Shown: positions 42,001 through 47,083 of the stretch, piece by piece
Position numbering within the stretch: position 1 is the stretch's first letter
Layout of the letters: each line of letters starts with the position of its first letter
Source of the DNA: a virus
Strand: one strand, 5' to 3'
Virus record (IMG/VR): IMGVR_UViG_3300028800_000112
Coordinates: 1 to 55,374 of that record
DNA: 55,374 nucleotides
Made by a program: the position numbers and the translations under genes
Notes under the pieces: model-generated
Told to the model about the DNA's origin: nothing
Databases searched by the model: none
What the model saw: the letters and a program-made list of their open reading frames with translations, nothing else

Positions 42001-42071
42001 TACACCGCCACGGTACCGACCCGTGTTCCCCAGATTAAGAGTCTGGTGCATCACCTTAATGCTTGCAGCGC
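42001..42071 (-). tRNA. tRNA-Lys(CTT) with non-consensus T-loop
   Basis: Acceptor GCGCTGC/GCGGTGT (all pairs with G-U), D-stem GCAT/ATGC, anticodon arm CCAGA-CTCTTAA-TCTGG, T-stem CACGG/CCGTG. The T-loop is GTCGGTA, without T54 and A58. Adjacent to tRNA-Ile. Confidence 0.65.
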
Positions 42072-42313: not shown

Positions 42314-42385
42314 TAGTCCCTGAAGGAATCGAACCCTCATGAGTAGCTTAGAAGGCTACTGTCCTGTCCGTTGAACGAAGGGACC
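42314..42385 (-). tRNA. tRNA-Arg(TCT)
   Basis: Acceptor GGTCCCT/AGGGACT, anticodon arm GTAGC-CTTCTAA-GCTAC, canonical T-loop. Its 5' base coincides with the predicted start of a promoter at 42392-42421. Confidence 0.92.
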
Positions 42386-42391
42386 ATGATT

Positions 42392-42421
42392 AGTTTAACC
42401 TATCAAAATATCATTTGTCAA
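42392..42421 (-). promoter_or_regulatory. promoter inside tRNA array
   Basis: TTGACA 42416-42421, 18-bp spacer, TAAACT 42392-42397 on the minus strand; predicted start at 42385, the first base of tRNA-Arg(TCT). Confidence 0.75.
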
Positions 42422-42422
42422 G

Positions 42423-42494
42423 ATCCTCACCAGGGAATCGAACCCTGGACCTCTTCCGTACCAAGGAAGTGTTCTGCCACTGAACTAGCAAGGA
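42423..42494 (-). tRNA. tRNA-Thr(GGT)
   Basis: Acceptor TCCTTGC/GTGAGGA, D-stem GTTC/GAAC, anticodon arm CTTCC-TTGGTAC-GGAAG, T-loop TTCGATT, discriminator T. Confidence 0.92.
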
Positions 42495-42970: not shown

Positions 42971-43041
42971 TACCCAGTGAAGGTAATGCTCCCTCGTCGT
43001 CGGTTTGTAAAACCGCTACTCTTCTTTTGAGCTAACCGGGC
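42971..43041 (-). tRNA. tRNA-Val(TAC) with non-consensus T-loop
   Basis: Acceptor GCCCGGT/ACTGGGT, D-stem GCTC/GAGT, anticodon loop TTTACAA on a stem with one end mismatch, T-stem GAGGG/CCTTC but T-loop AGCATTA. Confidence 0.65.
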
Positions 43042-43626: not shown

Positions 43627-43708
43627 AGGAAGGTAGAGGTGTCGAGCCCCACGGGTTTCCCCGCCTCACGCTTTCAAGGCGTGCTGGTCCGCCGGGACCG
43701 TACCTTCC
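43627..43708 (-). tRNA. tRNA-Ser(TGA)
   Basis: Type II: acceptor GGAAGGT/ACCTTCC, anticodon loop CTTGAAA on CACGC/GCGTG, long variable arm, T-loop CTCGACA (position 54 changed). Confidence 0.87.
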
Positions 43709-43835
43709 AGGGTGACTGTTGTACGACCATCGTAGCATTTAGACTCAAGAATTACAACTTTCTTGAGAGGAACTATATAGATCGCCAGCAGGTCAGACTT
43801 ACTTGCGTCAAACTTTTTGATCTGTGTCGCAGTCG

Positions 43836-43887
43836 TGCTGCCACTACACTATCCGGCTCAATTGAGCCAGCCGGGATTCGAACCCTG
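43836..43887 (-). other. tRNA-half module in 3'-then-5' order
   Basis: On the minus strand a T-arm (CAGGG-TTCGAAT-CCCGG) and acceptor strand CTGGCTC are followed after AATT by GAGCCGG, which pairs with it over 7 bp, and then a D-arm (GTGT-AGTGGCA-GCAC). No anticodon arm can be built from the flanks, so it may be a relic. Confidence 0.45.
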
Positions 43888-45143: not shown

Positions 45144-45215
45144 TGGCTCCCGGTGGTAACGATCCACCCTCTCAGGTTCTTCAGACGAGCGCTAATCCGT
45201 CTCAGCTAGAGAGCC
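45144..45215 (-). tRNA. degenerate tRNA-Phe(GAA)-like element
   Basis: Acceptor GGCTCTC/GGGAGCC (7 bp), D-arm GCT/AGC, loop CTGAAGA with anticodon GAA but two mismatches in the anticodon stem, T-stem GGTGG/CCACC with loop ATCGTTA. It overlaps the last codons of the HNH gene. Confidence 0.4.
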
Positions 45216-46929: not shown

Positions 46930-46973
46930 TGTAGCCCGATTTGTTTTGCTTGTCTCGGAAATCACAACAAGAG

Positions 46974-47054
46974 TACAGGGCGATAGCTCTAACCGCTGAG
47001 ACTTACACGGGCACTTAGACCCGTGACCGGATTTGAACCGGCGACCACCGCCGT
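46974..47054 (-). tRNA. candidate circularly permuted tRNA-Tyr(GTA)
   Basis: Reading the minus strand: AC-GGCGG (3' side of anticodon stem), TGGTC, T-arm GCCGG-TTCAAAT-CCGGT, acceptor 3' strand CACGGGT; then CTAAGT; then acceptor 5' strand GCCCGTG, TA, D-arm with AGCGGTTA loop, TCGCC and CTGTA. GCCCGTG pairs with CACGGGT (7 of 7) and TCGCC with GGCGG (5 of 5); joined ends give loop CTGTAAC with anticodon GTA. The 3' half precedes the 5' half. See findings for doubts. Confidence 0.45.
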
Positions 47055-47083
47055 AAGCTATCCGACATAAGCGCTCATGTCAA
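47055..47083 (-). promoter_or_regulatory. promoter before the permuted tRNA module
   Basis: TTGACA 47078-47083, 17-bp spacer, TAGCTT 47055-47060 on the minus strand; predicted start about 47048. Confidence 0.72.

What the first reader, a model, noticed from the sequence alone, without database searches (positions are those of the whole stretch)
46974..47083. Module that reads as a circularly permuted tRNA-Tyr
On the minus strand a T-arm and 3' acceptor strand come first, then six bases, then the 5' acceptor strand and D-arm. The acceptor strands pair 7 of 7, and TCGCC at the end of the 5' half pairs 5 of 5 with GGCGG at the start of the 3' half. Joining the ends gives loop CTGTAAC with anticodon GTA. 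Permuted tRNA genes are known from a few algae and archaea; I know of no established phage example. Against it: the promoter just upstream predicts RNA starting at about 47048, inside the 3' half's stem, and I see no splicing motif. A decayed tandem duplication that lost its outer halves is the main alternative.
Basis: partly seen in the sequence, partly recalled or inferred. Interest (0 to 1): 0.85.

Follow-up and report, generated by a model that had tools for sequence, protein, structure and literature searches.

The report
Phage Y-RNA-like permuted tRNA mimic
What looked like a scrambled tRNA-Tyr gene in a soil phage is best read as a small non-coding RNA of the bacterial Y RNA (YrlA) type, whose tRNA-shaped end is naturally built in permuted order; it is a new, diverged example of a known kind, not a new way to make tRNA.

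Summary
The layout is real. On the minus strand (47052-46979) come a T-arm, a 7-bp acceptor-like hairpin with a 6-nt loop, a D-arm and a closing stem. It is probably not a permuted tRNA-Tyr gene. Rfam, scanned permissively, aligns the full length of YrlA (bacterial Y RNA, with a permuted tRNA-like domain) to it at 22.4 bits; the gathering score is 69. Related phages settle the kind. Four Borockvirus-type Streptomyces phages and two related soil contigs carry tandem arrays of such units, up to nine, each on its own basal stem, beside a Ro60/TROVE gene. YrlA-like hits (30-52 bits) lie beside Ro genes in 10 of 12 other phages sampled. Ro-less related loci with 97 tRNAs give none (one Ro-less contig elsewhere does). 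Against tRNA-Tyr: 5-nt variable region (relatives' tRNA-Tyr is 83-85 nt), no A73, 2 extra nt before the D-stem, and such modules joined at arbitrary points are called tRNAs with arbitrary anticodons. The window also holds a second, weaker module (43835-43887). Open: the window's Ro-binding stem is weak, no Ro gene lies in this 55-kb fragment, and the closest relative lacks the module, so it may be a diverged, orphan or decaying Y RNA.

The parts
46979..47052 (-). Core permuted tRNA-like module (m1): closing stem, T-arm, acceptor-like hairpin, D-arm
   Evidence: Rfam YrlA full-length alignment, 22.4 bits; model R2 built without the window, 28.3 bits
47026..47042 (-). T-arm GCCGG-TTCAAAT-CCGGT
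   Evidence: 5/5 pairs, TTCRA loop
47006..47025 (-). Acceptor-like hairpin CACGGGT-ctaagt-GCCCGTG
   Evidence: 7/7 pairs including one G-U
46986..47001 (-). D-arm TCTC-AGCGGTTA-GAGC (3 of 4 pairs; 4-nt linker before it instead of 2)
   Evidence: the 37 best reference modules all have a 2-nt linker
47045..47052 (-).
   Evidence: 8-bp stem in the MFE of the core
46979..46986 (-). 3' strand of closing stem CTATCGCC
47061..47072 (-). Candidate 5' strand of a basal (Ro-type) stem, GCTTATGTCGGA
   Evidence: 10 of 12 Watson-Crick pairs with 46948-46959; shuffle frequency 0.046 for WC only, so only suggestive
46948..46959 (-). Candidate 3' strand of the basal stem, TCCGAGACAAGC
47055..47083 (-). Promoter-like TTGACA-N17-TAGCTT
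   Evidence: read; below the threshold; the same TTGACA type sits 6-9 nt before tRNA-Met, -Asp and -Arg in this array
43835..43887 (-). Second permuted tRNA-like module (m2), T-arm 4/5, acceptor hairpin CTGGCTC-aatt-GAGCCGG 7/7, D-arm 4/4
   Evidence: 35.2 bits with R2

Best explanation
Module 1 encodes the tRNA-mimicking domain of a YrlA-type (Y RNA-like) non-coding RNA, diverged and possibly decaying; it is not a tRNA gene. The RNA folds as T-arm, acceptor-like hairpin and D-arm on a closing stem, giving a tRNA elbow without an anticodon. By analogy with YrlA, a basal stem would be bound by a Ro60-type ring protein of phage or host, and the tRNA-like part would engage PNPase, tRNA-modification enzymes or tRNA-cutting nucleases. 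Shown here: layout, kinship with Ro-linked phage Y-RNA arrays, lack of tRNA-Tyr features. Inferred: transcription, Ro binding, function.
For: The YrlA model aligns end to end on the right strand. BRock, LuckySocke, GiJojo and pSt2308 (TerL 53%) each carry two such modules, among 4-5 Y-RNA units, between tRNA-Asn and a Ro-like gene. Contigs G004 and G006 have TROVE plus longer arrays. Basal stems, not used to select units, pair with their own partner at 5.2-5.75 of 6 against 2.6-3.6 for swapped partners (the G004 anchors failed). YrlA-like hits lie beside Ro in 10 of 12 other phages. Among TerL relatives strong modules track Ro, except G019. Ro-less control: 0 hits in 97 tRNAs. The module is in the same kind of array and also follows tRNA-Trp and tRNA-Asn.
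Against: YrlA score 22.4 is far below gathering (69), and tandem ordinary tRNAs reach 23 bits with that model and 27.4 with R2. The D-arm linker is 4 nt, against 2 nt in all 37 best reference modules. The relatives' Ro-site motif (CGAAGTG or CGATGCG ... TACTTC) is absent and the basal stem is only suggestive. No TROVE gene in the window, whose tRNA array is complete. The closest relative G002 has Arg-9 bp-Pro here, without the module. The unconstrained fold slightly prefers a structure that breaks the D-arm, -42.4 against -41.6 kcal/mol.
Confidence: 0.72

Rival explanations
1. A decayed tandem tRNA duplication or rearrangement: the 3' half of one copy and the 5' half of the next survive, the outer halves are gone, and the product has no function.
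For: tRNA genes here can abut with no spacer (tRNA-Ala/tRNA-Leu 43982/43981). The acceptor stem GCCCGTG/CACGGGT is identical to that of the tRNA-Arg(acg) genes of GiJojo and pSt2308, and the module lies next to tRNA-Arg(acg). The closest relative lacks it. The D-arm carries 2 extra nt.
Against: All other arms are intact; no trace of the outer halves was seen in the flanks; no tRNA in the related loci matches both halves better than unrelated tRNAs do (joint score 35, background median 35). The same layout is common and structured in relatives with Ro and absent from 97 tRNAs in Ro-less loci.
Confidence: 0.2
2. A genuine permuted tRNA-Tyr gene, as in red and green algae: the precursor is cut by RNase P and RNase Z at the acceptor linker and the ends are joined in the anticodon loop.
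For: 5-bp anticodon-like stem, U33-G34-U35-A36 available, no ordinary tRNA-Tyr found in the window. Related phages encode RNA ligases.
Against: Variable region 5 nt, whereas relatives' tRNA-Tyr genes are class II, 83-85 nt; nucleotide 73 would be C, not A; position 1-72 is G-U; 4 nt instead of 2 before the D-stem; no bulge-helix-bulge seen at the ends; only 3 of 155 junctions are called Tyr and control Y-RNA modules are called as tRNAs of arbitrary identity.
Confidence: 0.05
3. Chance juxtaposition of tRNA-like arms.
For: The window is tRNA-dense.
Against: 0.12 descriptor hits per shuffled window, 0 hits in 1.07 Mb of Ro-less related loci with 97 tRNAs, two modules in this window.
Confidence: 0.03

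Closest known systems
YrlA / bacterial Y RNA (Rfam RF02553), tRNA-like domain seen in Salmonella YrlA, PDB 6CU1 (cited in PMC8394870)
   Same: Order T-arm, acceptor-like hairpin, D-arm on a closing stem; TTCRA T-loop and GG D-loop; in related phages it lies beside a Ro60/TROVE gene.
   Different: 22.4 bits against a gathering score of 69; Ro-binding stem and motif not clearly recognisable; no Ro gene in this fragment; 2 extra nt before the D-stem.
Y-RNA arrays of Borockvirus-type Streptomyces phages and contigs G004/G006 (found here)
   Same: Same TerL family, same tRNA-array context, same permuted module.
   Different: There modules sit in tandem arrays of 4-9 units with variable paired basal stems next to Ro; in the window there are two isolated modules and no Ro.
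Permuted tRNA genes of red and green algae and archaea
   Same: 3' half upstream of 5' half in DNA.
   Different: No splice motif, wrong variable arm and discriminator for tRNA-Tyr; relatives' modules have no consistent anticodon stem or loop.
Permuted (two-piece) tmRNA, Rfam RF04321
   Same: A permuted tRNA-like domain in a bacterial or phage non-coding RNA.
   Different: No match of that family here; one is present in Brevundimonas phage Gurke.

Membership tests
YrlA / bacterial Y RNA (RF02553) | Permuted tRNA-like domain: T-arm, acceptor-like hairpin, D-arm, in that order | tested here: met
YrlA / bacterial Y RNA (RF02553) | tRNA-elbow nucleotides (TTCRA T-loop, GG in D-loop) | tested here: met
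   alignment A2
YrlA / bacterial Y RNA (RF02553) | Basal stem between 5' and 3' ends | tested here: inconclusive
   10/12 Watson-Crick pairs 47072-47061 with 46959-46948; 4.6% of shuffles do as well; in the YrlA alignment 4 of 6 basal pairs form
YrlA / bacterial Y RNA (RF02553) | Conserved Ro-binding motif | tested here: inconclusive
   The motif of the sister phages is absent; the YrlA consensus is partly matched, CGGAUaGCUU / CUUGUUG
YrlA / bacterial Y RNA (RF02553) | Score above the Rfam gathering threshold | tested here: not met
   22.4 against 69. All sampled Ro-linked phage hits also miss it (main hits 29.9-52.1 bits; one weaker extra at 25.8), so it is not filed as an Rfam member, only as YrlA-like
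YrlA / bacterial Y RNA (RF02553) | Ro60/TROVE partner | tested here: inconclusive
   None in the 55-kb window, which is a genome fragment
YrlA / bacterial Y RNA (RF02553) | Stable RNA bound by Ro | not testable with these tools
   needs infected cells
Permuted tRNA gene (tRNA-Tyr) | 3' half upstream of 5' half with pairing acceptor and anticodon stems | tested here: met
Permuted tRNA gene (tRNA-Tyr) | Class II variable arm and A73 of bacterial tRNA-Tyr | tested here: not met
   variable region TGGTC, 5 nt; C at position 73; relatives' tRNA-Tyr 83-85 nt
Permuted tRNA gene (tRNA-Tyr) | Unique tRNA identity after joining | tested here: not met
   3 of 155 junctions called Tyr, 12 called otherwise; Y-RNA controls called with arbitrary anticodons
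Permuted tRNA gene (tRNA-Tyr) | Splice motif (bulge-helix-bulge) at the ends to be joined | tested here: not met
   by inspection only
Permuted tRNA gene (tRNA-Tyr) | Joined or circular RNA | not testable with these tools
   needs RNA-seq

The most novel reading that the evidence does not exclude
In this phage family, Y-RNA units have multiplied into arrays (4-9 per genome, with different anticodon-less tRNA-like heads) next to Ro, RNA ligase and large tRNA arrays. They may serve as decoys or adaptors that protect the phage tRNA pool from anticodon nucleases or other tRNA-targeting host defences. The window phage would keep two such heads without its own Ro, using host Ro or acting as bare decoys.
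Probability: 0.12. Interest if true: 0.75.

Novelty: new member of a known kind. Interest (0 to 1): 0.4.

Why it matters
It removes a tempting claim (a permuted tRNA gene in a phage) and replaces it with a coherent one. Permuted tRNA mimics of the Y RNA type are widespread in phages, usually beside Ro60 genes and often in tRNA arrays, but Rfam's cut-off misses every one sampled here and some are annotated as ordinary tRNAs. The arrays of up to nine Y-RNA units, each with its own basal stem, make it testable what Ro and Y RNAs do for a phage, for example against tRNA-cutting defences. The tRNA-like domain of Salmonella YrlA has been proposed as a competitive inhibitor of an anticodon nuclease (PMC7790460).

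Tried and rejected
Permuted tRNA-Tyr: rejected on variable arm, discriminator, D-linker and junction controls. CM score alone as proof: rejected, since tandem tRNAs score as high. Covariation of the module arms (97.9% paired) was not used as independent proof, because modules were picked by a descriptor that requires pairing; basal stems, which were not, are used instead. Near-identical copies of m1 in IMG/VR: none. Closer relatives through the RecA-like gene: none; through RNR: one, 43% identity; through the 271-aa ORF: two, one of them (L249) with a module and a Ro-like gene in its tRNA array. First basal-stem script gave poor anchoring and was redone; its G004 anchor still failed. The primary YrlA paper (Chen 2014) and related papers were not held.

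Full report
WHAT IS THERE. Read 5'->3' on the minus strand: GGCGGTGG (47052-47045), TC, T-arm GCCGG-TTCAAAT-CCGGT, CACGGGT, loop CTAAGT, GCCCGTG, TAAG, D-arm TCTC-AGCGGTTA-GAGC, then TATCGCC. Two details were not in the finding: the D-stem pairs 3 of 4, and it follows the acceptor strand after 4 nt instead of 2. The closing stem extends to 8 bp. A descriptor scan (T-arm, acceptor hairpin, D-arm) gives 0.12 hits per shuffled window. It also finds a second module at 43835-43887, just downstream of tRNA-Leu.

WHAT IT RESEMBLES. A permissive Rfam scan aligned the whole YrlA model (RF02553, Y RNA-like, positions 1-114) to 47068-46958 on the correct strand at 22.4 bits, E 0.0086 for 191 nt; the gathering score is 69. 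YrlA is a bacterial Y RNA with a large stem from its two ends and a domain resembling the D, T and acceptor arms of tRNA; the stem holds the Ro60-like ring protein Rsr, and the other domain engages PNPase (PMC8394870). The score alone proves little. Tandem ordinary tRNAs reach 23.3 bits with this model, and with my own model R2, built without the window, a tandem pair at 42351-42457 scores 27.4 against 28.3 for module 1 and 35.2 for module 2.

RELATIVES DECIDE THE KIND. The window is an IMG/VR fragment. Its terminase is 53% identical to those of Streptomyces phages BRock, LuckySocke, GiJojo and pSt2308. In all four, between tRNA-Asn and a Ro-like RNA-binding gene (TROVE, E about 1e-14 to 1e-16), lies an intergenic array of 4-5 units. 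Each unit has its own basal stem (TTGACAGC...GCTGTCA, AGCGCC...GGCGCT, TTGAGTTCC...GGAACTCA and so on), an internal motif CGATGCG...TACTTC / TTTTCTA, and a variable head; two heads per genome are T-arm, 7-bp acceptor hairpin and D-arm, as here. Two related soil contigs with TROVE genes, G004 and G006, carry longer arrays; G006 has nine units. Basal strands pair with their own partner at 5.2-5.75 of 6 positions and with swapped partners at 2.6-3.6 (the anchoring failed for G004). This is compensatory evidence that was not used to select the units.

ASSOCIATION WITH RO. Of 20 terminase relatives searched whole, TROVE was found in G004 and G006 only; strong module hits (31 bits or more) occur in those two and in G019, which has no detectable Ro. 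Control loci of the same family without Ro, 1.07 Mb with 97 tRNAs, give no descriptor hit at score 15 or more. A Ro protein search found 96 phage records. In 12 of them sampled across Gordonia, Streptomyces, Brevundimonas, Caulobacter, Vibrio, Bacteroides, Rhizobium, Bacillus and Xanthomonas phages, YrlA-like hits of 29.9-52.1 bits lie within about 3 kb of Ro in ten, all below Rfam's cut-off. Permuted tRNA-like modules are thus a normal companion of phage Ro genes. TROVE proteins in phages (PMC7824862) and YrlA in phages (PMC7765460) have been mentioned before.

WHY NOT A PERMUTED tRNA-Tyr. De-permuting module 1 at 155 junction choices, ARAGORN calls a tRNA in 15, of which 3 are Tyr(gta), 4 Val(tac) and 2 Lys(ctt). 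The same procedure on Y-RNA modules of other phages gives 22-141 calls per module with arbitrary anticodons. The GTA reading is therefore not evidence. Tyrosine tRNAs of the related phages are class II, 83-85 nt, while the variable region here is 5 nt; position 73 would be C; positions 1-72 would be G-U; two extra nucleotides disturb the U8-R9 linker; and no bulge-helix-bulge is visible by inspection.

WHY NOT SURE IT IS A WORKING Y RNA. The conserved motif of the sister phages' Ro site is absent around module 1. A candidate basal stem, 47072-47061 with 46959-46948, pairs 10 of 12, but 4.6% of shuffles do as well. The minimum-energy fold of the 125-nt candidate (-42.4 kcal/mol) is slightly better than the fold that keeps the tRNA-like arms (-41.6), without tertiary contacts counted. 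The window has no Ro gene, and its tRNA array, where relatives keep Ro, is complete. The closest relative with an array, G002 (TerL 74%), has tRNA-Arg(acg) and tRNA-Pro(tgg) 9 bp apart with no module. The D-linker is 4 nt (module 1) and 3 nt (module 2), against 2 nt in the 37 best-scoring reference modules. An orphan or slowly decaying Y RNA fits these facts. The acceptor stem equals that of tRNA-Arg(acg) in GiJojo and pSt2308, which keeps a tRNA-derived relic in play.

MECHANISM. Most likely, with inferred steps marked: an RNA begins near 47072 or, if the weak promoter TTGACA-N17-TAGCTT is real, near 47048 (inferred); it folds into a tRNA elbow closed by the 8-bp stem (supported by sequence); through its stem it would be held by a Ro60-type protein of phage or host (inferred from relatives), presenting a tRNA mimic to PNPase, tRNA-modifying enzymes or tRNA-cutting nucleases (inferred; a competitive-inhibitor role was suggested for Salmonella YrlA in PMC7790460).

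VERDICT. Observation confirmed; interpretation as a permuted tRNA gene not supported; YrlA-like tRNA mimic, new member of a known kind, working state uncertain.

Noticed in passing
L244 (G006:C1:47000-52000), L243 (G004), L003-L006 upstream of the Ro genes: Tandem arrays of 4-9 Y-RNA units with individually paired basal stems and different heads (permuted tRNA-like or plain hairpins) beside phage Ro genes.
   Followed up: partly
L004:5482-5555, L005:5106-5180, L254:2704-2775: Annotated tRNAs (LuckySocke tRNA-Ser gct, GiJojo tRNA-Arg cct, VanLee tRNA-Arg tct) overlap permuted Y-RNA modules and are probably misannotations.
   Followed up: partly
L254-L265: Rfam's YrlA gathering score (69 bits) misses every Ro-linked phage hit sampled (main hits 29.9-52.1 bits); the family model seems too narrow for phages.
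   Followed up: partly
window 45626-45573 and 45539-45144 (-): A tRNA-Phe-like 5' half (CCCGG TTGAAGC) directly upstream of an HNH endonuclease ORF whose end overlaps a weak tRNA (45215-45144): possible homing endonuclease insertion in a tRNA gene.
   Followed up: partly
window 43887-43835 (-): A second permuted tRNA-like module 13 nt after tRNA-Leu, without an anticodon-like stem.
   Followed up: partly
window 42971-43041, 43628-43708, 45144-45215, 42001-42071 (-): tRNA-like matches found by Rfam but not by ARAGORN, one of them scoring as tRNA-Sec, possibly tRNA-Ser(tga).
   Followed up: no
L258:6345-6690: Brevundimonas phage Gurke carries a permuted tmRNA (RF04321, above gathering score) about 2 kb from its Ro gene.
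   Followed up: no
L245:1554-1764 (G019): Two permuted modules, one with a 9-bp basal stem, in a 109-kb contig without a detectable Ro gene; a parallel to the window's orphan modules.
   Followed up: partly
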